Program-made: the position numbers and the translations under genes
The notes under the pieces: model-generated
What the model saw: only the letters and a program-made list of their open reading frames with translations
Told to the model about the DNA's origin: nothing
Database searches by the model: none
Source of the DNA: a virus
IMG/VR virus record: IMGVR_UViG_3300042514_000732
Span: 1-35,429 of that record
DNA length: 35,429 nucleotides
Strand: one strand, 5' to 3'
Part shown: piece after piece, positions 16,952-29,252 of the stretch
Position numbering within the stretch: the first letter of the stretch is position 1
Layout of the letters: the number at the start of each line of letters is the position of its first letter

Positions 16952-16967
16952 TGTGATGTGTGTCACT
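16952..16967. promoter_or_regulatory. CRP-like site 1
   Basis: TGTGA-TGTGTG-TCACT, one mismatch to TGTGA-N6-TCACA; in the leader of the leftward trio. Confidence 0.5.
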
Positions 16968-17054
16968 TATTTGCTACGCTCATGCGAACACTTGTTCGCC
17001 TTATTTGGTAGGCTCATTGACTTTTTTAACACTATTTAATTTTCTTATACTAGA

Positions 17055-17083
17055 AGTATAGCAAAGAAATGTCAAAAAGTCAA
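17055..17083 (-). promoter_or_regulatory. leftward promoter of the microgene trio
   Basis: On the minus strand TTGACT, 17 nt, TATACT, then TCTAGTATAA. It is closely similar to the rightward promoter at 18089 and gives a leader of about 190 nt to ATG 16858. Confidence 0.65.
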
Positions 17084-17104
17084 GACGACACGCCGTATCT
17101 TGTA

Positions 17105-17120
17105 TGTGATGTGCCTCACA
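17105..17120. promoter_or_regulatory. CRP-like site 2
   Basis: Exact TGTGA-TGTGCC-TCACA, upstream of the leftward promoter at 17055-17083. Confidence 0.55.
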
Positions 17121-17135
17121 CGCCTCGAAAAAAAG

Positions 17136-17158
17136 TTATCCACATGACGTACATCACA
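17136..17158. promoter_or_regulatory. DnaA-box 9-mer abutting CRP-like site 3
   Basis: TTATCCACA (17136-17144) overlaps CATGA-CGTACA-TCACA (17143-17158). The same composite recurs 42 bp downstream. Confidence 0.55.
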
Positions 17159-17177
17159 CCCCTATTTCACGCTCAAG

Positions 17178-17200
17178 TTATCCACATGACCTGTATCACA
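17178..17200. promoter_or_regulatory. DnaA-box 9-mer abutting CRP-like site 4
   Basis: TTATCCACA (17178-17186) overlaps CATGA-CCTGTA-TCACA (17185-17200), an exact repeat of the composite at 17136. The two lie four helical turns apart. Confidence 0.55.
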
Positions 17201-17240
17201 ATCCCTTTTGTCCGCTATGTCCGTTTTGTACCCCTCAATT

Positions 17241-17262
17241 TGTCACACCCCCCTGTTATACT
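17241..17262 (+). promoter_or_regulatory. rightward promoter with TGTCAC spacer element
   Basis: TGTCAC, 10 nt, TATACT: the same geometry as five TGTCAG promoters downstream. It drives the 17315-17972 microgenes. The palindrome TTGATAA-agg-TTATCAA (17280-17296) follows within the leader. Confidence 0.6.
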
Positions 17263-17314
17263 TACTAGTATAAGGAAAGTTGATAAAGGTTATCAAACTT
17301 AGAAAGGTCAGAAA

Positions 17315-17488
17315 ATGACAAATCGTATTTGGGAAAGTGTAAATGACTACACTAATGAAAGTGACGCTAAGCGTCTTGGCTATGTAACTTGCTCAGCAGG
17401 TTGCGGTAGAGTAACCGCTTGGTCACTCTGCACAATGTGTGGCGGTAACTATACCGAACACAATCTACTAGGAAAGGTGGTCAAGTAA
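17315..17488 (+). CDS. 57-aa zinc-binding microprotein
   Basis: MTNRIWESVNDYTNESDAKR... with CSAGCGR and CTMCGG knuckles (C-x3-C ... C-x2-C), a likely zinc ribbon. First gene of a five-gene run. RBS AGAAAGG. It ends TAATG, sharing a base with the next start. Function unknown. Confidence 0.72.
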   Translation: MTNRIWESVNDYTNESDAKRLGYVTCSAGCGRVTAWSLCTMCGGNYTEHNLLGKVVK

Positions 17489-17670
17489 TGACTACACTAA
17501 CAATAAACAATGTATGCAAAGAGCATACACCTAATAAACCTGCTATCTCTGATGTAGCAGATACACAATTCACATTCTGTGAGATGTGTGAAAATAACAT
17601 TGAGCGTTACTACTATGATGGTGACCCTGAACGACTACCTGAGTGGTCAGATTGGAAGGTGTCTCTATGA
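17488..17670 (+). CDS. 60-aa Cys-containing microprotein
   Basis: MTTLTINNVCKEHTPNKPAI..., with VCKEH and FCEMCENN supplying C, H and CxxC ligands; acidic C-terminus. Coupled to neighbours by TAATG upstream and ATGA downstream. No family recognised. Confidence 0.7.
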   Translation: MTTLTINNVCKEHTPNKPAISDVADTQFTFCEMCENNIERYYYDGDPERLPEWSDWKVSL

Positions 17671-17828
17671 GTCACTATGTAAATGTAAAGTCAGTATGTG
17701 GTAACGCTACTACATCTATTGACATCTATGACTTAGAGTTAAACGATAACATTGTGTGTTGTGATAACTGTAAATCTATCCTGATGTGTCGCAAGGCATG
17801 GGACTACCTATACAAGGAGGCTAAGTAA
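17667..17828 (+). CDS. 53-aa zinc-ribbon microprotein
   Basis: The start is the ATG that overlaps the previous stop as ATGA (17667-17670), giving MSHYVNVKSVCGNATTSIDI...; an earlier in-frame ATG at 17643 would overlap too far. 'CCDNCKSILMC' is a CxxC-type knuckle. Ends TAATG into the next gene. Confidence 0.7.
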   Translation: MSHYVNVKSVCGNATTSIDIYDLELNDNIVCCDNCKSILMCRKAWDYLYKEAK

Positions 17829-17917
17829 TGACAACACTACAAGATAAATTAGATGCAGTAGCACTAACACTAGAGCCAGTGTTATGGGATTTGCTAGATG
17901 AGATTGAGGAGAAATAA
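17828..17917 (+). CDS. 29-aa acidic helical microprotein
   Basis: MTTLQDKLDAVALTLEPVLW then DLLDEIEEK. The TAATG overlap with the previous stop supports translation. It is an acidic amphipathic helix of unknown role. Confidence 0.6.
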   Translation: MTTLQDKLDAVALTLEPVLWDLLDEIEEK

Positions 17918-17918
17918 A

Positions 17919-17972
17919 TTGTTAGTTATTCTAATTGCTATGATTGTATTTGGTTTTCTTTACTCTTTGTAA
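17919..17972 (+). CDS. 17-aa membrane peptide (TTG start)
   Basis: LVILIAMIVFGFLYSL after a TTG start, with GAGGAG 8 nt upstream. It consists of one hydrophobic span and is the shortest of six such peptides in the window. Confidence 0.45.
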   Translation: MLVILIAMIVFGFLYSL

Positions 17973-17980
17973 ATTAGATC

Positions 17981-18008
17981 TTGGCGGGTTATTTATTTAG
18001 CCCGTCAA
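17981..18008 (+). terminator. hairpin ending the 17.3-18.0 kb microgene operon
   Basis: TTGGCGGG / CCCGTCAA is an 8-bp stem with one G-T pair and a 12-nt loop, just after the last gene. It is followed by ATTTTCGAC (18010-18018), a motif found after most operons here. Confidence 0.55.
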
Positions 18009-18023
18009 AATTTTCGACAAAAG

Positions 18024-18067
18024 TTATCCACAGGGTTATACACAGGGTAAATGTGGTGTATCTCACA
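18024..18067. promoter_or_regulatory. two DnaA-box 9-mers and CRP-like site 5
   Basis: TTATCCACA (18024-18032), TTATACACA (18036-18044) and the degenerate TGTGG-TGTATC-TCACA (18052-18067), followed by CGACACGCCGT (18070-18080). Confidence 0.5.
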
Positions 18068-18088
18068 CACGACACGCCGTTGCAGGAC

Positions 18089-18117
18089 TTGACTTTCTGA
18101 CATTTTCATGGTACTAT
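18089..18117 (+). promoter_or_regulatory. rightward copy of the duplicated promoter
   Basis: TTGACT, 17 nt, TACTAT, then TCTAGTATAA. It is homologous to the leftward promoter at 17055-17083. The first ATG downstream (18138) opens only a 21-codon frame. Confidence 0.62.
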
Positions 18118-18150
18118 TCTAGTATAACAATTAAATAATGACTAATAAGG

Positions 18151-18206
18151 CAGTGAGCCTAGCAAATAAATGTGACCAGTATCACAGTGAGCCTAGCGAA
18201 TAAATG
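18151..18206 (+). repeat. 22-bp direct repeat flanking CRP-like site 6
   Basis: CAGTGAGCCTAGC(A/G)AATAAATG occurs at 18151-18172 and 18185-18206 (one mismatch). TGTGA-CCAGTA-TCACA (18171-18186) fills the space between. Related units, TGAGCCTACCAAATAAGG and TGAGCGTAGCAAATAAGTG, lie on the minus strand at about 16968-17018. Confidence 0.65.
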
Positions 18207-18214
18207 CCCTAAAA

Positions 18215-18236
18215 TGTCAGCCCCCCATGATAGGAT
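18215..18236 (+). promoter_or_regulatory. TGTCAG-N10-TAGGAT promoter
   Basis: TGTCAG 18215-18220, TAGGAT 18231-18236 with TGA extension. Drives 18270-18992. Confidence 0.6.
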
Positions 18237-18269
18237 AGTCTTATCAACTTAACGAAAGGAAGTCAATAA

Positions 18270-18455
18270 ATGACTTACACTGTAACACTAGAAACCTTTT
18301 CAGGTTCTACTAAAAAAATCAACCTCTCCTCTAAAGGTCAGGTTGCTCAATTCATCAACACTTATCCTAACACTCTACCTGTTGGCGTATCTGTTAAAGT
18401 CGCTTGCGACTCTCTTGGTATTAGCGGTACACTTCGTGGAAAGGCTTCACTATAA
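18270..18455 (+). CDS. 61-aa protein, unknown function
   Basis: MTYTVTLETFSGSTKKINLS...: a small beta-rich protein with an 'SSKGQVAQFINTYPNTLPVG' helix-turn segment. RBS AAAGGAAG. First of four overlapping genes (TAATG to the next). No family recognised. Confidence 0.72.
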   Translation: MTYTVTLETFSGSTKKINLSSKGQVAQFINTYPNTLPVGVSVKVACDSLGISGTLRGKASL

Positions 18456-18661
18456 TGGTAAAAATCCCTCACTCACTTCACTTCGTAACAGAGGTAGATG
18501 AAACTCATCCAGTAGGAATGCAACTACTTAGACTTTCAGAGTCAATGCGTACTCAAATGCTTGAAGAAATGCTAAAAGAATTATTGGCTCCGATGATTCA
18601 ACCTCACCTTGATGAAATAAATGAGCGTGGCACTTATGCAATTCTTAAGGTGGCAGAATAA
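18455..18661 (+). CDS. 68-aa helical protein, unknown function
   Basis: MVKIPHSLHFVTEVDETHPV... with a long amphipathic helix (LSESMRTQMLEEMLKELL). TAATG on both sides. No recognised motif. Confidence 0.72.
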   Translation: MVKIPHSLHFVTEVDETHPVGMQLLRLSESMRTQMLEEMLKELLAPMIQPHLDEINERGTYAILKVAE

Positions 18662-18846
18662 TGATGACACGCAAGGACTATGTAGCAACTGCTGAAATCC
18701 TACACGGATTCAAAGATTTAATTGGCGACCAATTACTTTTTGAAGATTTGGTGGACGAGTTTTCTTTAATGTTTGAAAGTGATAACGAAAGATTTGACCA
18801 TGTAAAGTTTTTCAATGCTTGCCATAAAGAAAGCGAGTTAGCATGA
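18661..18846 (+). CDS. 61-aa conserved phage microprotein
   Basis: MMTRKDYVATAEILHGFKDL..., with 'DLVDEFSLMFESDNERFDHV' and a 'FNAC' end. This MTRKDY(V)xxAxIL ... DNxRFDxxxFxxAC pattern looks like one I associate with many phage microproteins, from memory. Role unknown. Overlaps the next gene as ATGA. Confidence 0.75.
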   Translation: MMTRKDYVATAEILHGFKDLIGDQLLFEDLVDEFSLMFESDNERFDHVKFFNACHKESELA

Positions 18847-18992
18847 TTTTAGATACTGGAACACTCATTGCAATTGTAATTGCCCTTGGTGGATCTCTTT
18901 CAATGATGCTTGTATTTTGGAAACAAAATGTTGAGCAACATAAAGAAATTCGTAGATTGCAAATCGCATTGCGAGATGAACGCAACAAATAA
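18843..18992 (+). CDS. 49-aa single-span membrane protein
   Basis: MILDTGTLIAIVIALGGSLS then MMLVFWKQNVEQHKEIRRLQ...: one transmembrane helix (about 7-26) followed by a basic coiled-coil-like helix. ATGA overlap supports translation. It resembles Rz/holin-type small membrane proteins only in outline. Confidence 0.65.
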   Translation: MILDTGTLIAIVIALGGSLSMMLVFWKQNVEQHKEIRRLQIALRDERNK

Positions 18993-19002
18993 AATAAAAT
19001 CC

Positions 19003-19025
19003 TGAGCATGATTGAAAACTGCTCA
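19003..19025 (+). ncRNA. covarying hairpin element, copy 1
   Basis: TGAGCA / TGCTCA stem with 11-nt loop TGATTGAAAAC, preceded by TCC, 11 nt after a stop codon. Confidence 0.6.
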
Positions 19026-19028
19026 AGA

Positions 19029-19107
19029 ATTTTCGACCCGTTCGGGCGTGTCGTCCACAGTTTACGTAAGTTATCCACAGGCCCAGTATTTTGTGAGGTT
19101 TATCACA
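19029..19107. promoter_or_regulatory. intergenic regulatory module with DnaA box and CRP-like site 7
   Basis: ATTTTCGACCC (19029-19039), GGGCGTGTCG (19044-19053), TTTACGTAAG (19061-19070), TTATCCACA (19071-19079), and exact TGTGA-GGTTTA-TCACA (19092-19107). The first three parts recur in order at 20516-20554. Confidence 0.55.
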
Positions 19108-19148
19108 TGGCTTGAGCGTCTCACTATTTGGAATTACTGGCTGGTAGG

Positions 19149-19178
19149 TTGATAAATGTCAGCCATAAATGATAGGAT
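19149..19178 (+). promoter_or_regulatory. promoter with TGTCAG spacer element
   Basis: TTGATA (19149-19154), 18 nt, TAGGAT (19173-19178) with TGA extension; TGTCAG at 19157-19162, 10 nt before the -10. Confidence 0.62.
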
Positions 19179-19221
19179 TACAGAGTAATAAAGTAATTAA
19201 ACTAACGAAAGGCGGACTTAA

Positions 19222-19446
19222 ATGTCAGCACTAACTTATACAATAGATAACCTACTAGTAGGAAAACACTATCGTTCCCGTAATCGTAAGATTGAAGGAA
19301 TTATCCAAGATGCAGAAAGTCATGACGCATGGTATGGAAATGAATACCAAGCCTATCGTGTTCGTGTTAGACCTCAACACGGAGATAGCATTAAATCATG
19401 GGGTAAAGATTTTTATGCGGTTGTCGCAGTAAAGACGGGAGAATAA
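19222..19446 (+). CDS. 74-aa protein, unknown function
   Basis: MSALTYTIDNLLVGKHYRSR..., basic and beta-rich with HYRSRNRKIEGII and VRVRPQHGDSIKSWG; it reads like a small SH3/OB-type barrel. A related arrangement (VGDTYTTQKSKVTGVIKEI) is seen in the protein at 21661. RBS GAAAGGCGG. First gene of the 19222-20488 operon. Confidence 0.72.
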   Translation: MSALTYTIDNLLVGKHYRSRNRKIEGIIQDAESHDAWYGNEYQAYRVRVRPQHGDSIKSWGKDFYAVVAVKTGE

Positions 19447-19449
19447 ATA

Positions 19450-19641
19450 ATGGGAAATTTATTTGATGAAATTGGTACTTGCTTTGAGTGCTATGATGAA
19501 GGCGTATTATTCTTTGGCAATAGTAGCGAGGAATACGATACAGAATTCTGCACTTGCGCTAAAGGTCAAGAATTAGAAAATTACTACATTGAGTGGTATG
19601 CTGAGAATGAAATGAATGAATACACATTGGAGAATGCATAA
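19450..19641 (+). CDS. 63-aa Cys-rich acidic protein
   Basis: MGNLFDEIGTCFECYDEGVL..., with TCFECYD and EFCTCAKG giving CxxC and CxC, a probable zinc knuckle. Acidic C-terminus. Ends TAATG into the next gene. Family not recognised. Confidence 0.7.
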   Translation: MGNLFDEIGTCFECYDEGVLFFGNSSEEYDTEFCTCAKGQELENYYIEWYAENEMNEYTLENA

Positions 19642-19856
19642 TGGATTACCTATACTCTGTCACCGCTACCTATGACTCTGCCCCTATCCCTAATTGGGTT
19701 GGGCGTTATAGTGATGCTTTATCTGCCGTTGAAACTTTCCAACAGTTTGTTGATAGTGGAGATGCTAAAGAATACGCAACAATAAACTTGTCTGAACCTT
19801 CAGGCAAGATGCACACAAAAACTTTCTACACTACAGGATTGGTCGTAACAAAATAA
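19641..19856 (+). CDS. 71-aa protein, unknown function
   Basis: MDYLYSVTATYDSAPIPNWV..., an alpha/beta pattern (a strand, the DALSAVETFQQFVDSG helix, then two strands). TAATG at both ends. Confidence 0.7.
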   Translation: MDYLYSVTATYDSAPIPNWVGRYSDALSAVETFQQFVDSGDAKEYATINLSEPSGKMHTKTFYTTGLVVTK

Positions 19857-20176
19857 TGGGAAACAATACAGCGATGGACTTAGCAGAAAACATTGACATA
19901 ACACTTGAACAGGCTATTGGTTATCACTTACAGGGTAATCACTATCCACCAGTACCTCTTAGCATGGTGCCAGTATGCATACAGGCTCTTGACTTTGCTA
20001 ATGAAGATTTATGGGATGAAACCGTTGAGATGCCAGAGGGTATTTTGTACAAGGGCAACACGGCTGCACCTGTATGGGCTATTATTGAGCAACACCACCT
20101 ACACGCATGGCTACCTGAAAACATTGAATACTACAATGAAGATGAAGGATTTGAGTTAGGATTGGGGCTAGAATAA
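19856..20176 (+). CDS. 106-aa acidic protein, unknown function
   Basis: MGNNTAMDLAENIDITLEQA..., with HYPPVPLSMVPVCIQALDFA and LHAWLPENIEYYN. The segment around 'HYPPVP..M' looks like an active or binding loop, but no family is recognised. Coupled by TAATG to a 22-aa membrane peptide. Confidence 0.72.
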   Translation: MGNNTAMDLAENIDITLEQAIGYHLQGNHYPPVPLSMVPVCIQALDFANEDLWDETVEMPEGILYKGNTAAPVWAIIEQHHLHAWLPENIEYYNEDEGFELGLGLE

Positions 20177-20244
20177 TGGATGCATGGCTAATATTCTTTG
20201 GCTTTCTTTTACTATCAATTATCGTTACAGCGGGAGGACGTTAA
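20176..20244 (+). CDS. 22-aa membrane peptide
   Basis: MDAWLIFFGFLLLSIIVTAG, GR, stop. A single hydrophobic span ending AGGR. The TAATG overlap supports translation. It is similar to the 21-aa peptide at 21469, which ends AGGK. Confidence 0.58.
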   Translation: MDAWLIFFGFLLLSIIVTAGGR

Positions 20245-20245
20245 A

Positions 20246-20488
20246 ATGACTGTTACAATAACTAGCATGGAATTAAAATTTGCAGATAACCTTACACCAG
20301 ATCAATTAATGATTGAAGACTTAATTATGGTTGAAGATGAGGTTGTTGAGGTACTTGGAATTCAATCTGATTCATCGGGTAACATTTATCTTGTTGCTTA
20401 TAAAGATGAGTTTGGTGAAAAGAACATTGTGCAATTCCAGCATGATGAATTTGTTTCTCTCTACGTGTATGTAGATAGTGACGAATAA
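20246..20488 (+). CDS. 80-aa acidic protein, unknown function
   Basis: Start ATG 20246 chosen for GGGAGGACG upstream. MTVTITSMELKFADNLTPDQ..., a compact acidic beta-rich protein (LIMVEDEVVEVLGIQSD, IVQFQHDEFVSLYVYVD), possibly a small beta-barrel. Last gene of its operon. Confidence 0.72.
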   Translation: MTVTITSMELKFADNLTPDQLMIEDLIMVEDEVVEVLGIQSDSSGNIYLVAYKDEFGEKNIVQFQHDEFVSLYVYVDSDE

Positions 20489-20490
20489 AG

Positions 20491-20516
20491 TTTTTATGCA
20501 CTTCCCCGCATAAAAA
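20491..20516 (+). terminator. operon-end hairpin
   Basis: TTTTTATGC / GCATAAAAA is a 9-bp stem with an 8-nt loop, 2 nt after a stop codon. The module AATTTCGACCC, GGGCGTGTCG, TTTACGTAAG follows (20516-20554). Confidence 0.55.
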
Positions 20517-20556
20517 TTTCGACCCCCGCACTCGGGCGTGTCGGTTTACGTAAGAT

Positions 20557-20585
20557 TTGACATTTTCCCACATTTTTGGTAAGAT
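20557..20585 (+). promoter_or_regulatory. leaderless promoter of the GP88 operon
   Basis: TTGACA, 17 nt, TAAGAT, 6 nt, ATG (20592). The spacer contains TTTTCCCACATTTTTGG, similar to the spacer of the promoter at 24444. Confidence 0.75.
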
Positions 20586-20591
20586 TAATTT

Positions 20592-20747
20592 ATGAAGAAA
20601 ACCAAAGAGGAATTACGTAGACTAATGGAATTACGTAGGTCTAACGCTGCCTCTGCCGTGCCCTCTAAGAAAAACTATTCTAGGAAAAAGAAATGTCAGT
20701 CCCTTATGCTAGAATTAAAAAAAGAAAGCGAGACCCCCAATGACTAA
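20592..20747 (+). CDS. 51-aa basic protein
   Basis: MKKTKEELRRLMELRRSNAA..., very rich in Lys and Arg (NYSRKKKCQ), so nucleic-acid binding is plausible. Leaderless by the -10 to ATG distance. Overlaps the GP88-like gene by 8 nt. Confidence 0.7.
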   Translation: MKKTKEELRRLMELRRSNAASAVPSKKNYSRKKKCQSLMLELKKESETPND

Positions 20748-21462
20748 ATTGCTAAGAAGCAAAGATAGGAAAGTAACTAATGCCGTCTCACCAAATGGAA
20801 AGACCCCAACAATTGCTAACACATTCGGATTACCAGCAGGAAAGGCTTATTCATGTCCTGGCGCAACGTCTGTCTGTGAGAGTGTTTGCTATGCAGGCAA
20901 ATTGGAAAAGGTATTCCCAACAGTAAAGAAAAACTTATTACATAACTGGGAATTACTAAAGGACGCAGACCTTGACACCATGCAGGTGTTGCTAAGTGAA
21001 ATGATAGATGAATTTATTATTGACTGCAACAAGCGCAATGCCCCTAAACTATTCCGTATCCACTGGGACGGCGACTTCTTCAATGATACCTACACACAGG
21101 CATGGAAGACTATCATCCTTAATAATACAGACATACAGTTCTGGGTTTATACCCGTGTAAAATCTGCAGCCCTTATGCTTAAGGGTATTGAAAATCTCTC
21201 ACTATACTATTCCACAGATAGCGAGAATAAAGATACAGGTGTGGAATTAAAAACAGATCATGGAATACGTCTTGCATACCTTGCTAAGAATTTCTTAATA
21301 GGGCAAGCAGACATGAAAGCACTTATGGGCAAGCCAGCCGCTAAGTGTCCTGAGAATAATAAACAGATACCACTAATCAGCACAAAGGGCTCGGCTTGCG
21401 TTTCTTGCTCATTGTGTGTATACTCTAAAGCAGACATAGTTTTTTCTGCCTCAAAGAAATGA
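20740..21462 (+). CDS. GP88-family phage protein (Cys-cluster protein)
   Basis: 240 aa. It begins KLLRSKDRKVTNAVSP and then carries the hallmark SCPGATSVCESVCYAGKLEK (about residues 38-57). 'FRIHWDGDFFNDTYTQAW' lies at about 105-122 and a C-terminal cysteine cluster KCPENN...KGSACVSCSLCVYS. This is the pattern of mycobacteriophage 'gene product 88'. The grouped Cys suggest a metal or Fe-S cluster; the biochemical role is not established. Overlapping start with the basic 51-aa gene. Confidence 0.85.
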   Translation: MTKLLRSKDRKVTNAVSPNGKTPTIANTFGLPAGKAYSCPGATSVCESVCYAGKLEKVFPTVKKNLLHNWELLKDADLDTMQVLLSEMIDEFIIDCNKRNAPKLFRIHWDGDFFNDTYTQAWKTIILNNTDIQFWVYTRVKSAALMLKGIENLSLYYSTDSENKDTGVELKTDHGIRLAYLAKNFLIGQADMKALMGKPAAKCPENNKQIPLISTKGSACVSCSLCVYSKADIVFSASKK

Positions 21463-21468
21463 GAATAA

Positions 21469-21534
21469 ATGGAAATCTTAATCGTATTAGTAATAGGCTT
21501 AATAACCATGCTAATCATAGCAGGGGGCAAATAG
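21469..21534 (+). CDS. 21-aa membrane peptide
   Basis: MEILIVLVIGLITMLIIAGG, K, stop. One span ending AGGK, parallel to the 22-aa peptide at 20176. ATG is 6 nt after the GP88 stop. Confidence 0.52.
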   Translation: MEILIVLVIGLITMLIIAGGK

Positions 21535-21539
21535 CCCAT

Positions 21540-21555
21540 TGTGACATAAATCACA
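21540..21555. promoter_or_regulatory. CRP-like site 8
   Basis: Exact TGTGA-CATAAA-TCACA, centred about 76 bp upstream of the -10 at 21621. Confidence 0.6.
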
Positions 21556-21596
21556 CCCGCAAGCGTCTCAAATAGTGAGAAATCTAGGAAAGGGAT

Positions 21597-21626
21597 TTGG
21601 AAAATGTCAGTAGGAAATGTTATACT
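21597..21626 (+). promoter_or_regulatory. promoter with TGTCAG spacer element
   Basis: TTGGAA (21597-21602), 18 nt, TATACT (21621-21626); TGTCAG 21605-21610. Confidence 0.62.
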
Positions 21627-21660
21627 TAATACATACAACAAACTAAAAAGGAGAAACACA

Positions 21661-21825
21661 ATGTCAGTAGCAACAGCAACATACAAGGTAGGCGACACAT
21701 ACACAACACAGAAGTCAAAGGTCACAGGAGTAATCAAGGAGATTACACCACAGGCTAATGGTAATGTACGAGTAGCCCTAGATGTAGAAGGCAAGACTCG
21801 TTACACAACTTGGACGGCTAAGTAA
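21661..21825 (+). CDS. 54-aa basic beta-rich protein
   Basis: Start ATG 21661 with AAGGAG 7 nt upstream. MSVATATYKVGDTYTTQKSK..., with VTGVIKEITPQANGNVRVAL: five short strands, like a small SH3/OB barrel. Unknown role; possibly nucleic-acid binding from the basic charge. Confidence 0.72.
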   Translation: MSVATATYKVGDTYTTQKSKVTGVIKEITPQANGNVRVALDVEGKTRYTTWTAK

Positions 21826-21841
21826 TCTAATTACTTATTCC

Positions 21842-21864
21842 TGAGCATGAAGTAAAACTGCTCA
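21842..21864 (+). ncRNA. covarying hairpin element, copy 2
   Basis: TGAGCA / TGCTCA with loop TGAAGTAAAAC, preceded by TCC, 17 nt after a stop codon. Confidence 0.6.
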
Positions 21865-21910
21865 ACACACCCCCTAAAAAAATCAACCACCAAAGAAAAG
21901 AGATAAACAG

Positions 21911-22333
21911 ATGGCAAGACAAAAAGCAATCTCAGTAAAGATAGCAACACCAAAGGTAATCAAGGCACTAGAACAATCACTTGCTAAGTTAGAACTTGAT
22001 TGGACTTCACAAGAAGCAAACGAGGCTAAGTATGAGAAGGCTCGTAAAGCATGGCAGAAAGAACTTATTGACTTTGCCGTAGCAAACATCAAGAAGGCAG
22101 AAAACTTCCGTACTAACTATCGCTCATGGTCAAACAATCTTAACATTGACTTTGACTTGACAGTAGCAGAAAAAGATTTGCCTAAAGAGCCTGAGAAGGA
22201 CTATGTATCACTACATCAACACTCATACAATGAGCAGAAAGAGGAAATCTCTAACGCTATTCGTATTCTAAAGATGACAGATGAGGAAACAGTAAGCACC
22301 AGCACTTACAATGCTATTGCTCGTTATCTCTAA
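21911..22333 (+). CDS. 140-aa helical protein, unknown function
   Basis: MARQKAISVKIATPKVIKAL..., long charged helices (about 15-70, coiled-coil-like) and a conserved-looking middle 'FRTNYRSWSNNLNIDFDLTV'. Hexad spacing suggests oligomerisation. RBS AAGAGA. Ends just before a GC-rich hairpin. Unknown role. Confidence 0.72.
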   Translation: MARQKAISVKIATPKVIKALEQSLAKLELDWTSQEANEAKYEKARKAWQKELIDFAVANIKKAENFRTNYRSWSNNLNIDFDLTVAEKDLPKEPEKDYVSLHQHSYNEQKEEISNAIRILKMTDEETVSTSTYNAIARYL

Positions 22334-22337
22334 ATAA

Positions 22338-22367
22338 TTTGGGGGAGGCGTAAAAACCTCCCTCAAA
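22338..22367 (+). terminator. terminator-like hairpin
   Basis: TTTGGGGGAGG / CCTCCCTCAAA is an 11-bp stem (one G-T) with an 8-nt loop, 4 nt after a stop codon. The T-run is poor. Confidence 0.6.
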
Positions 22368-22530
22368 CTTCATCTCTGCTAAGCCCTATGCCATGATGCG
22401 TAGGTATGCCTGAGATGATGTTCGCCAGGCTGATTAGGGCGATAACATAAATACTATAGAGCAAGGTTCCTGCAGACCTAAAGAAGCAGACATCCTGAGC
22501 ATGATCCAAAAAGGCTCCCCGCAAGGGTCC
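22368..22530 (+). ncRNA. structured intergenic segment, possible small RNA; includes hairpin copy 3
   Basis: No ORF. GCCCTA (about 22383) can pair with TAGGGC (about 22436), enclosing a GCCT / AGGC hairpin. GAGC / GCTC (22497-22517) with loop beginning ATGATCCAAAAA is a weaker copy of the hairpin family. Confidence 0.35.
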
Positions 22531-22560
22531 TTGACAATTGTCAGTGGTACCTAGTACAAT
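22531..22560 (+). promoter_or_regulatory. promoter with TGTCAG spacer element
   Basis: TTGACA (22531-22536), 18 nt, TACAAT (22555-22560); TGTCAG 22539-22544. Confidence 0.68.
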
Positions 22561-22591
22561 TAAATATACCAACTACAGAAAGAGGCCCCTT

Positions 22592-23020
22592 ATGGACCAA
22601 ATGGAAACATCGTACCCAACAGTTATAAACGCAACAGAAGACTTTCTTAAGAATCAAATTCAGCAAAAGGATGCTCGCATCGTAGCGCTAGAAGAGCACA
22701 GTCAGCGAGTAACCCAACGTGACTTTGACACAAGAGCAAAACTAGAAAGAATTCGCAATGACATGCAAGAGTGGACCCTAGAAGCAATGGACAATGACAC
22801 CATTGATGAAAGCGTTGCTACAGAAATTGCTGACATATGTGGCTTTGAATTAACAAAAGAATTTGAATTGGAAGTTACAGTTCTTTATTCAATTACCGTT
22901 AATGCACGAGATGAAGAAAGTGCACAGAATTTAATTCACGATATTGATTTTGATACCGTTCAATATAGTGATGAAAATATTTCTTGGTTAAACGCCAGTG
23001 TTGATAGAATAGATATTTAG
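22592..23020 (+). CDS. 142-aa coiled-coil phage protein
   Basis: ATG 22592 is preferred because the promoter at 22531-22560 lies downstream of the ATG that opens the longer frame. N-terminal METSYPTVINATEDFLKNQI, coiled coil (about 18-60), then a C-terminal alpha/beta domain ending in 'TVLYSITVNARDEESAQNLI', the layout of a small ferredoxin-like fold domain that follows a helical stalk. Unknown role. RBS AAAGAGG. Confidence 0.75.
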   Translation: MDQMETSYPTVINATEDFLKNQIQQKDARIVALEEHSQRVTQRDFDTRAKLERIRNDMQEWTLEAMDNDTIDESVATEIADICGFELTKEFELEVTVLYSITVNARDEESAQNLIHDIDFDTVQYSDENISWLNASVDRIDI

Positions 23021-23071
23021 TAGGGGGCTACTAATAGACATATCGCATGTCTTTAAACTAGATAAGGGCCC

Positions 23072-23104
23072 TAAGCATGGCCACGTAAACTGCTTATTTT
23101 TTTT
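23072..23104 (+). terminator. terminator-form copy 4 of the hairpin family
   Basis: TAAGCA / TGCTTA (6 bp, 13-nt loop ending GTAAAC) followed by eight T. The stem differs from copies 1 and 2 by a compensated change. Two small hairpins precede it (23018-23033, 23036-23052). Confidence 0.7.
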
Positions 23105-23112
23105 GCCATAAA

Positions 23113-23140
23113 ATTTTCGACCCGTGTGACCTGGATCACA
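23113..23140. promoter_or_regulatory. ATTTTCGAC motif and CRP-like site 9
   Basis: ATTTTCGAC (23113-23121) followed by exact TGTGA-CCTGGA-TCACA (23125-23140). Confidence 0.6.
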
Positions 23141-23198: not shown

Positions 23199-23227
23199 TT
23201 GCATTTGTCAGACTATCCTGCTACACT
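23199..23227 (+). promoter_or_regulatory. promoter with TGTCAG spacer element
   Basis: TTGCAT (23199-23204), 17 nt, TACACT (23222-23227) with TGC-type extension; TGTCAG 23206-23211. Confidence 0.65.
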
Positions 23228-23260: not shown

Positions 23261-24277
23261 ATGGCACATGAACTAGAAACGCAAAACGGAAAAGCATCAT
23301 TCGCATCTTTCCGTGAGCCTGCTTGGCATGGATTGGGTACCGTATTCACAGAAGAAAAAACCACAAAAGAAATGTTAGACCTAGCAAGTCTATCTAACTG
23401 GAATGTTCGTCTTGAAGATTTGGAAACCCCATCACACTTAGTAAGTGACAAAAACTATCAGTACGTATTGCGTACCAATCCTACAGATTCAACACAGACA
23501 GACATTCTTGGTGTCGTTGGTGAGCGTTATCATGTAATGCAGAATGAAGATTTATTCTCATTCGGTGATAACATTCTAGACGGTGGAGGACGTTGGGAAA
23601 CTGCTGGCTCAATCAAGGGTGGACGTGTTGTGTTCGGTGCGTTAGCATTGGAACGTGAAACAATCCTAGACCCTAATGGTGTTGCAGATAAGGTTAAAAC
23701 TTATTTACTTATCAACACATCACACGATGGCTCAATCGCTATTCAAGCAAGCATCACACCTGTTCGTGTTGTGTGCGCTAATACTCTCAATCTTGCTCTT
23801 GGTTCAATCAAGAAAAAGAATGGTGTTAAGCAATCATTCAAGATTCGTCACACACAGACCGCAAGTGGCAAGGTTGCCGTTGCTCGTGAGACTCTTGGTC
23901 TTGCACATAAGTACATGGATTCATTTGACATCATGGCAAAGGCTATGATTGAAAAAGAAGTCAATGCTAAGCAATTCAACGACATCATTCTTGCTGCATA
24001 CCCTAAGCCAGAAAAAGATTCTAAGGGTGCTTTCAAGAAATGGGAAAACAAGGTAGATGTTATCAACGACATTTATACAGGCGAGTACAATGGAATGATT
24101 GCTGGTAATGCGTGGGGTGCTTTCAATGCATTAACAGAACGCCTTGATTGGTACCGCTCTGCTCGTGGTGGTTCTAACGAATCTATCCTTGCATCAGCAT
24201 CAGGATTTGACCCTGCAATTAACGCAGAGAAAAATCGTTTGCTAAAAATTGTGCAAAGCACAATGCAGATTGCATAA
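23261..24277 (+). CDS. DUF932 / phage-plasmid-like protein (TIGR03299 type)
   Basis: 338 aa. N-terminal FREPAWHGLGTVF (about 18-30), 'GVVGERYHVMQNEDLFSFGD' (about 87-106), 'GGRWETAGSIKGGRVVFGAL' and 'TPVRVVCANTLNLAL' are the landmark segments of DUF932. The length agrees with the family. Members are widespread in phages and plasmids with no settled function; some are linked to recombination or replication loci. It has its own regulated promoter with a CRP-like site about 95 bp upstream and is followed by hairpin copy 5 and tRNA-Asp. Confidence 0.88.
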   Translation: MAHELETQNGKASFASFREPAWHGLGTVFTEEKTTKEMLDLASLSNWNVRLEDLETPSHLVSDKNYQYVLRTNPTDSTQTDILGVVGERYHVMQNEDLFSFGDNILDGGGRWETAGSIKGGRVVFGALALERETILDPNGVADKVKTYLLINTSHDGSIAIQASITPVRVVCANTLNLALGSIKKKNGVKQSFKIRHTQTASGKVAVARETLGLAHKYMDSFDIMAKAMIEKEVNAKQFNDIILAAYPKPEKDSKGAFKKWENKVDVINDIYTGEYNGMIAGNAWGAFNALTERLDWYRSARGGSNESILASASGFDPAINAEKNRLLKIVQSTMQIA

Positions 24278-24390: not shown

Positions 24391-24443
24391 CAAGAAATTT
24401 TCGAAATTGTGATATAAAACACACTTTACGATTACGTAACAAG

Positions 24444-24472
24444 TTGCATTTTTCCACGATTTCGGCTACAAT
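24444..24472 (+). promoter_or_regulatory. leaderless promoter
   Basis: TTGCAT, 17 nt, TACAAT, 6 nt, ATG (24479). A degenerate CRP-like site (TGTGA-TATAAA-ACACA, 24408-24423) lies upstream. Confidence 0.7.
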
Positions 24473-24789: not shown

Positions 24790-25013
24790 TGTGGAACTGG
24801 ACTAAGTATGATTATCTATGTACTGACTGTGATGCATTGATTGAGATAACTACCCTGAAAGATAGGTCTGAATGTTTTCAACCTCTTTGCACCTGTGGAT
24901 CTGTTAATGTAATTAATATTGGGGTATCAGACGGCAATGCTCCCCTCTTTGAACCTGTGATTGAAGTCACACCCCCACAACTTGTAAAAATCAACACCAA
25001 CCCGTATACTTAG
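24789..25013 (+). CDS. 74-aa zinc-ribbon protein
   Basis: MWNWTKYDYLCTDCDALIEI..., with LCTDCD and PLCTCGS forming CxxC and CxC about 20 residues apart, a zinc ribbon reminiscent of small regulatory or transcription-factor ribbons. Proline-rich tail. Unknown role. Confidence 0.74.
   Translation: MWNWTKYDYLCTDCDALIEITTLKDRSECFQPLCTCGSVNVINIGVSDGNAPLFEPVIEVTPPQLVKINTNPYT
24982..25010 (+). promoter_or_regulatory. internal near-leaderless promoter
   Basis: TTGTAA, 17 nt, TATACT, 7 nt, ATG (25018), overlapping the end of the previous gene. Confidence 0.5.
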
Positions 25014-28193: not shown

Positions 28194-28246
28194 TGTGGAT
28201 AAACCTGTGGATAACTAACATTTTCACGGTATTGACATGTGGATAA
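28194..28246 (-). promoter_or_regulatory. cluster of three DnaA-box 9-mers
   Basis: TGTGGATAA at 28194-28202, 28206-28214 and 28238-28246 (reverse complement of TTATCCACA), in the same orientation within 53 bp. The third lies in the spacer of the 28232 promoter. Confidence 0.65.
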
Positions 28247-28260
28247 CTGTGTGATATCCT
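28232..28260 (+). promoter_or_regulatory. leaderless promoter with DnaA box in its spacer
   Basis: TTGACA, 17 nt, TATCCT with TGA extension, 6 nt, ATG (28267). Confidence 0.7.
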
Positions 28261-29018: not shown

Positions 29019-29252
29019 ATGACGTATGTAATTACAGAAGCATGCATGGATGTGATGGATAAGTCCTGTATTGAGGAATGTCCAGTAGACTGTATTAAAG
29101 TTGGTAAAAATATGCTTTATATTGATCCAAATGATTGCGTTGACTGTGGTGCTTGCGAGCCTGTGTGTCCCGTTGAAGCCATCTATTACGAAGATGATGT
29201 CCCTGCTAACCTTGAGCATTATAAGGATATTAATAAAAACTTCTTTGCTTGA
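29019..29252 (+). CDS. fdxA: phage-encoded FdxA-type ferredoxin
   Basis: 77 aa. MTYVITEACMDVMDKSCIEE is followed by CPVDCIKVG, 'MLYIDPNDCVDCGACEPVCP' and VEAIYYEDDVP, the pattern of actinobacterial FdxA. Cys 9, 17, 21, 25, 40, 43, 46 and 50 are all present, enough for a 3Fe-4S plus 4Fe-4S (or 2x4Fe) protein. It stops soon after EDDVP, so it lacks the long C-terminal tail of host proteins (usually about 105 aa). Role: low-potential electron transfer; possible partners are the 2OG/Fe or reductase-type enzymes of the phage or a host P450 or reductase. Own promoter and leaderless start; no phage partner is adjacent. Confidence 0.9.
   Translation: MTYVITEACMDVMDKSCIEECPVDCIKVGKNMLYIDPNDCVDCGACEPVCPVEAIYYEDDVPANLEHYKDINKNFFA

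What the first reader, a model, noticed from the sequence alone, without database searches (positions are those of the whole stretch)
16952..23140. Array of nine CRP/GlxR-like palindromes in the middle-gene intergenic regions
Seen: TGTGA-N6-TCACA occurs exactly at 17105, 18171, 19092, 21540 and 23125, with one- or two-mismatch copies at 16952, 17143, 17185 and 18052 and a weaker one at 24408. By simple count a fixed 10-base palindrome is expected about 0.03 times in 35 kb. All are in non-coding gaps, mostly 50-95 bp upstream of a -10 box. The consensus equals the CRP family site, close to actinobacterial Crp/GlxR (known). Inference: the phage ties its middle genes to the host cAMP-type regulator, or encodes its own CRP-like factor outside this window.
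Basis: partly seen in the sequence, partly recalled or inferred. Interest (0 to 1): 0.9.

Follow-up and report, generated by a model that had tools for sequence, protein, structure and literature searches.

The report
Host-Crp-like sites on phage promoters
A large family of freshwater phages carries near-perfect copies of a bacterial master-switch (Crp) binding site at fixed, helix-matched distances upstream of a cluster of its promoters, which suggests that the phages switch on these genes with their host's own regulator, in hosts that do not visibly use such sites and seem unable to make the switch's usual signal.

Summary
In 160 related loci the palindrome is the commonest of all 5+5 palindromes: 784 copies with a 6-bp spacer against 0-20 with other spacers. 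Fifteen phage records of 90-114 kb average 54 sites/Mb; in the two read in full the sites fall within 11-14 kb. They stand upstream of orthologous promoters, not inside operons. Spacer preferences fit the GlxR/CRP consensus. Sites lie 49, 60, 70 or 80-81 bp from the -10, about one helical turn apart, and do not overlap the core promoter: the layout of a class-I-type activator, not a repressor. Most cores are a rigid composite, TGTC[AG]-N8-TGnTAnnnT. The 15 records encode no Crp-type DNA-binding domain. A host-like phage gene points to Nanopelagicales (acI) as host. Six of those genomes each have one Crp (recognition helix as in mycobacterial CRP where read), but no class III/IV adenylate cyclase, and the order hardly has the palindrome. 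Best reading: host Crp, possibly without cAMP, activates these phage genes, more likely early than middle. Binding is untested.

The parts
16952..16967 (.). imperfect CRP-like palindrome (1 mismatch), 305 bp from the nearest + strand -10; role doubtful
17105..17120 (.). exact CRP-like palindrome TGTGATGTGCCTCACA, most upstream of three in the leader region
17136..17144 (+). perfect DnaA box TTATCCACA next to the CRP-like site at 17143
17143..17158 (.). imperfect CRP-like site (2 mismatches) CATGACGTACATCACA
17178..17186 (+). perfect DnaA box TTATCCACA next to the CRP-like site at 17185
17185..17200 (.). imperfect CRP-like site (2 mismatches) CATGACCTGTATCACA, 72 bp from the -10
17241..17262 (+). 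class B core promoter TGTCA-N8-TGTTATACT
18024..18032 (+). perfect DnaA box TTATCCACA
18052..18067 (.). CRP-like site (1 mismatch), 60 bp from the -10
18089..18117 (+). class A promoter TTGACT-N17-TACTAT
18171..18186 (.). exact CRP-like site, 60 bp from the -10
18215..18236 (+). class B core promoter TGTCAG-N7-TGATAGGAT
19071..19079 (+). perfect DnaA box TTATCCACA, starting 21 bp upstream of the CRP-like site at 19092
19092..19107 (.). exact CRP-like site, 81 bp from the -10; present with at most 1 mismatch at all 82 distinct orthologous upstream regions
19157..19178 (+). class B core promoter TGTCAG-N7-TGATAGGAT
20694..20715 (+). class B core promoter of the GP88-family gene, without an exact CRP-like site here (a site with at most 1 mismatch in 32% of relatives)
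21540..21555 (.). exact CRP-like site, 81 bp from the -10
21605..21626 (+). class B core promoter TGTCAG-N7-TGTTATACT
23125..23140 (.). exact CRP-like site, 97 bp from the -10 (off the main spacing series)
23199..23227 (+). core promoter with both a TTGCAT-N17-TACACT layout and the TGTCAG element (class B) upstream of the DUF932 gene 23261-24277
24408..24423 (.). CRP-like site (1 mismatch), 59 bp from the -10
24444..24472 (+). class A promoter TTGCAT-N17-TACAAT
24982..25010 (+). class A promoter TTGTAA-N17-TATACT

Best explanation
The palindromes are operators for the host's single Crp/GlxR-type regulator, and together they make a phage regulon. When the phage DNA enters an actinobacterial cell (most likely Nanopelagicales), host Crp dimers bind these near-consensus sites and recruit host RNA polymerase from the upstream face of the helix (class-I-type activation). 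This turns on a block of small, probably early, host-takeover operons. The polymerase reads either a TTGnnn-N17-TAnnnT core or a rigid composite core with TGTC[AG] at about -28 to -24 and an extended -10. Shown: the array, its conservation, its restriction to promoters, its spacing, the core-promoter motif, the absence of HTH_Crp_2 in 15 related phage records, and a Crp in six candidate host genomes (with the CRP_Mt recognition helix in the two read). Inferred: that Crp is the binder, that binding activates, that the genes are early, that the host is Nanopelagicales, and that Crp may act there without cAMP.
For: 784 TGTGA-N6-TCACA against 0-20 for other spacers in 160 relatives; top of all 5+5 palindromes with spacers 0-12. 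84 sites in 1.57 Mb of 15 phage records, reversed-pattern control 0. Sites precede orthologous promoters (79-100% with at most 1 mismatch for three well-sampled promoters) and are near zero upstream of operon-internal genes. Half-site continues as T/C/G (A 5%) then N then T/A (G 6%), i.e. TGTGAt-n-w, consistent with GlxR TGTGANNTANNTCACA (PMC4254451). Site to -10 distances cluster at 49, 60, 70, 80/81, and orthologous promoters differ by whole turns. No site starts from 44 bp upstream to 44 bp downstream of the -10 in 460 class B promoters, so no overlap with the core. No HTH_Crp_2 in 15 phage records. Six Nanopelagicales genomes each have one clear Crp; in the two read, the RETVNKAL helix is identical to M. 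tuberculosis CRP. Host assignment: phage PstS is 57% identical over full length to Nanopelagicales PstS (458 bits) against 79 bits for the best hit in a phylum-wide sample beyond the one Nanopelagicales reference genome; phage WhiB present. CRP_Mt binds DNA about equally well with and without cAMP (PMC8026907) and its sites cluster at -60 to -40 (PMC4117774).
Against: The inferred host order does not use the palindrome: 14 exact sites in 121 genomes (reversed-pattern control 42), and none, even as GTGA-N6-TCAC, in intergenic DNA of one genome read in full. No adenylate cyclase of class III or IV was found in six host genomes. Spacing is 2-3 bp off the E. coli class I series (from memory: -61.5, -72, -82.5). 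The period is not tightly fixed statistically (9.8 to 11 fit about as well), and one promoter group sits at 65-66. Host inferred from one gene of one relative. No binding data.
Confidence: 0.62

Rival explanations
1. A phage-encoded DNA-binding protein of another fold, made early, recognises the same palindrome and activates the array as a phage regulon.
For: The inferred host shows no own regulon with this site, as expected if the binder is phage-specific. Most early-region proteins are small and without a known family.
Against: The spacer preferences and half-site are those of CRP/GlxR. No regulator domain shows in the 30 early-region ORFs scanned. WhiB is present elsewhere in the genome, but WhiB proteins are not known to read such palindromes (own knowledge).
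Confidence: 0.2
2. The sites are operators of a repressor (immunity or host silencing) that keeps the promoters off.
For: Multiple palindromes near promoters in actinophages recall L5-type stoperators. CRP_Mt can repress when bound near the start site (PMC4117774).
Against: Sites practically never overlap the core promoter or the start site; they lie at about -53 to -102 with helical spacing. Family-wide conservation of a host-run silencer of phage genes would be odd. No repressor or integrase showed in the families listed (top 25 only for A1).
Confidence: 0.08
3. The sites are a decoy that soaks up host Crp, disturbing host regulation; their place at promoters is secondary.
For: Phage density (about 54/Mb) far exceeds any of 296 phylum genomes (highest count 17 in a 3.4-Mb genome).
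Against: Helical spacing to promoters and conservation promoter by promoter are not expected of a decoy. The inferred host has almost no own consensus sites to compete with.
Confidence: 0.05
4. Host Crp and host DnaA act together on these regions, so that the array is a replication-linked control region as much as a promoter array.
For: TTATCCACA occurs 810 times on both strands in 2.68 Mb of relatives against about 20 expected, and clusters 18-25 bp upstream of the palindromes; 4 of 7 boxes in the window lie in the array.
Against: Many palindromes have no adjacent box. A separate triple-box cluster at 28194-28254 looks a better origin candidate.
Confidence: 0.05

Closest known systems
Class-I-type Crp/GlxR-activated promoters of Actinobacteria (GlxR of Corynebacterium glutamicum, CRP_Mt/Rv3676)
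   Same: Palindrome and spacer preference (GlxR consensus TGTGANNTANNTCACA, PMC4254451); upstream placement; host Crp with the recognition helix of CRP_Mt.
   Different: Here the targets are phage promoters; the site density is far above that of any bacterial genome sampled; the inferred host lacks the sites and the class III/IV cyclases; preferred positions about -53.5, -64.5, -74.5, -85.
Phages known to respond to host CRP-cAMP (e.g. lambda lysogeny, CTXphi; recalled, not tested here)
   Same: A host catabolite regulator affects phage genes.
   Different: Those cases are recalled as single or indirect inputs; here a family-wide array serves several operons with fixed geometry.
T4 middle promoters (MotA box)
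   Same: An element centred near -26 to -30 replaces or overlaps the -35, about 11-12 bp from the -10, often with TGn (PMC2988021).
   Different: The element is TGTC[AG], not TGCTT; MotA/AsiA homologues not sought; most of these promoters add an upstream CRP-like site.
Stoperators of L5-like (cluster A) mycobacteriophages
   Same: Many copies of a regulator site in intergenic regions of an actinophage.
   Different: Stoperators are asymmetric 13-bp repressor sites (own knowledge); here the site is a palindrome at activator positions.

Membership tests
CRP/GlxR-type operator array | TGTGA-N6-TCACA palindrome with fixed 6-bp spacer | tested here: met
   784 at spacer 6, 0-20 at other spacers
CRP/GlxR-type operator array | CRP-like preferences in the spacer (T-rich flank, A/T-rich centre) | tested here: met
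   185 distinct 16-mers, half-site TGTGA[T>C>G]N[T>A]
CRP/GlxR-type operator array | Upstream of promoters at helically spaced activator positions | tested here: met
   49/60/70/81 bp from the -10; steps of a whole turn within orthologous promoters; period only loosely fixed
CRP/GlxR-type operator array | Bound by a CRP-family protein | not testable with these tools
   Needs EMSA, footprint or ChIP
CRP/GlxR-type operator array | Cell contains a Crp with the matching recognition helix | tested here: met
   One clear Crp in each of six Nanopelagicales genomes; RETVNKAL helix seen in the two read; host itself inferred
CRP/GlxR-type operator array | Same operators used in the host's own genome | tested here: not met
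   14 exact sites in 121 genomes; none intergenic in one genome
CRP/GlxR-type operator array | cAMP-dependent control | tested here: inconclusive
   No PF00211 or PF01928 cyclase in six host genomes; other cyclase classes not sought
Phage-encoded CRP homologue | HTH_Crp_2 domain in the phage genome | tested here: not met
   0 of 15 records of 90-114 kb; completeness of the records not certified
T4-type middle promoters | Element centred at about -30, replacing the -35, at fixed distance from the -10 | tested here: met
   TGTC[AG]-N8-TGnTAnnnT: 471 at spacing 8 against at most 64 elsewhere; geometry only
T4-type middle promoters | MotA and AsiA homologues | not tested
   Only general Pfam/PHROG scans, top 25 families listed
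L5-like stoperators | Asymmetric 13-bp repressor sites scattered through the genome | tested here: not met
   Palindromic, and within 11-14 kb in the two records read in full

The most novel reading that the evidence does not exclude
A large family of phages of the commonest freshwater bacteria has built a gene-activation programme on the host's Crp, which works there without cAMP and has almost no consensus operators of its own in the host genome. The phage's sites would be the best Crp sites in the cell, and they act together with a phage-type composite core promoter (TGTCAG at about -28) whose reader is unknown.
Probability: 0.3. Interest if true: 0.87.

Novelty: new variant of a known kind. 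Interest (0 to 1): 0.74.

Why it matters
It would make a whole phage gene block depend on one host metabolic regulator in abundant lake bacteria, and it offers a first handle on what Crp does in streamlined acI genomes, where no own regulon with this site is visible. The spacing series is a natural experiment on how actinobacterial Crp contacts RNA polymerase. The prediction is testable with purified Crp and reporter plasmids.

Tried and rejected
A genome-contig search with the DUF932 protein to find the host directly: no relative. Phage-encoded Crp: none. First promoter model (TTGTCA as -35 with a 17-bp spacer): misplaced the -10 in many promoters; replaced after finding TGTC[AG]-N8-TGnTAnnnT. 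Cultured Stanwilliamsviridae relatives as carriers of the array: no exact sites. De novo search for a host Crp regulon in one Nanopelagicales genome: nothing. KU886271 (metagenomic phage proposed to infect acI) and the isolated Planktophila phages could not be compared: KU886271 is not in the collection, and no record accession for the isolates was at hand. Searches of the held papers for phage gene regulons under Crp/GlxR found none; subscription journals are mostly missing.
Full report
What is there. Three more copies have one mismatch (16952, 18052, 24408) and two have two mismatches but an intact ATCACA half (17143, 17185). Base composition predicts 0.04 exact sites. Counting everything up to two mismatches gives no excess (22 against 23.4), so the imperfect copies rest on their position only.

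Relatives. The window is a 35-kb virus record. The DUF932 protein (23261-24277) and the GP88-family protein (20740-21462) brought in 160 loci of related viral contigs, many of them 50-115 kb. In these 2.65 Mb (overlapping loci included) the palindrome with a 6-bp spacer occurs 784 times, against 0 to 20 for spacers of 2-5 and 7-11, and it is the commonest of all 5+5 palindromes with spacers 0-12. Fifteen records of 90-114 kb hold 84 sites in 1.57 Mb where 1.5 are expected, and the reversed pattern has none. In the two records read in full the sites fall within 13.9 and 10.6 kb.

Position. For orthologous genes, the region upstream of gene 19222 has a site with at most one mismatch in all of 82 distinct sequences, that of 18270 in 79% of 84, and that of 23261 in 82% of 99. 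Operon-internal genes (19450, 19856, 21911, 25762) and 15180 have 0-4%.

The core promoters. The TGTC[AG] element lies at about -28 to -24, the place of the MotA box in T4 middle promoters (PMC2988021). This is a likeness of layout only. The rest are ordinary TTGnnn-N17-TAnnnT promoters.

Spacing. Counted from site start to the start of the -10, distances pile up at 49 (second class) and at 60, 70 and 79-81 (composite class), that is centres at about -53.5, -64.5, -74.5 and -85 if the start lies 12 bp downstream of the -10 start. Within orthologous promoters the distance changes by whole turns (70/81, 60/70, 69/80). Of 460 distinct composite promoters, 300 have a site with at most one mismatch within 160 bp, and none of these starts from 44 bp upstream to 44 bp downstream of the -10. 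A circular test on distinct (promoter group, distance) pairs gives R = 0.40 at 10.5 bp (n = 105). The best period varies from 9.8 to 11 with the subset (12.8 in the smallest), and groups are not fully independent. So phasing is well supported and the exact period is not. One group sits at 65-66, and in the window the DUF932 promoter sits at 97. The layout is that of an activator acting on polymerase from upstream, and it argues against a repressor.

What binds. Positions inside the spacer are also selected: next to TGTGA, T 53% and A 5%; two further in, T 53%, A 26%, G 6% (185 distinct sites). This is consistent with GlxR TGTGANNTANNTCACA (PMC4254451). None of the 15 phage records has an HTH_Crp_2 domain, while all 14 control genomes do. 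The early-region proteins show no recognised regulator, although a WhiB-family protein occurs in the full genome examined. A host Crp is thus the simplest binder.

Which host. WhiB points to Actinobacteria. A PstS-like protein of one relative (record G001) is 57% identical over its full length to PstS of Nanopelagicales genomes (458 bits). In a phylum-wide sample of 296 genomes the best hit, apart from the one Nanopelagicales reference genome, has 79 bits. Six Nanopelagicales genomes each carry one clear Crp. In the two read, the gene lies next to what looks like an endonuclease III gene (by eye), and its RETVNKAL helix is identical to that of M. tuberculosis CRP. The assignment rests on one gene of one relative.

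The unexpected part. These hosts show no class III or class IV adenylate cyclase. In 121 genomes of the order there are only 14 exact palindromes, fewer than the reversed control (42). In one genome read in full, none lies between genes even as GTGA-N6-TCAC. So either the host's Crp regulates its own genes through weaker sites, or the binder is not Crp, or the host is another lineage. That CRP_Mt binds DNA about equally with and without cAMP (PMC8026907) makes cAMP-free use plausible, not shown.

Timing. The closest cultured homologue of the DUF932 gene lies at the left end of Streptomyces phages of the Stanwilliamsviridae, in a run of small genes. That these are early genes is inference from gene content and position. 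Those phages have no exact sites, so the array is particular to the freshwater group as far as seen.

Verdict. A real, conserved, promoter-linked operator array, most probably read by host Crp as an activator.

Noticed in passing
window 17241, 18215, 19157, 20694, 21605, 23206 (+): Rigid composite core promoter TGTC[AG]-N8-TGnTAnnnT, 471 distinct cases in relatives; only 2 matches in one Nanopelagicales genome. Its reader is unknown.
   Followed up: partly
window 17136, 17178, 18024, 19071 (+): Perfect DnaA boxes TTATCCACA beside the CRP-like sites; strongly enriched in relatives, often 18-25 bp upstream of the palindrome.
   Followed up: partly
window 28194-28254: Three TGTGGATAA boxes in about 55 bp around a TTGACA; possible replication origin or DnaA-controlled promoter; a similar triple lies at 82124-82198 in record G001.
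   Followed up: no
window 19002, 21841, 24290 (near-copy at 22494): Conserved hairpin CCTGAGCATGA..AAACTGCTCA after operons; GAGCA-N11-TGCTC is the second commonest palindrome in relatives (334; 198 distinct contexts), without an obvious U tract.
   Followed up: no
window 18011, 19030, 23114, 24398: TTTTCGA(C) word recurs just before the CRP/DnaA regions, and TTACGTAA palindromes at 19062, 20546, 24432.
   Followed up: no
L162:16389-16404 (Mycobacterium phage Trixie 46388-46403): An exact TGTGA-N6-TCACA site in the gap between the repressor gene 75 and gene 76 of a cluster A mycobacteriophage; conservation of the site itself in relatives was not checked.
   Followed up: partly
L199:9481-10602 (record G001): A phosphate-binding PstS-like gene in a relative, closest to Nanopelagicales; a likely host-derived gene.
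   Followed up: yes
window 29019-29252: Small 4Fe-4S ferredoxin-like gene in the phage.
   Followed up: no
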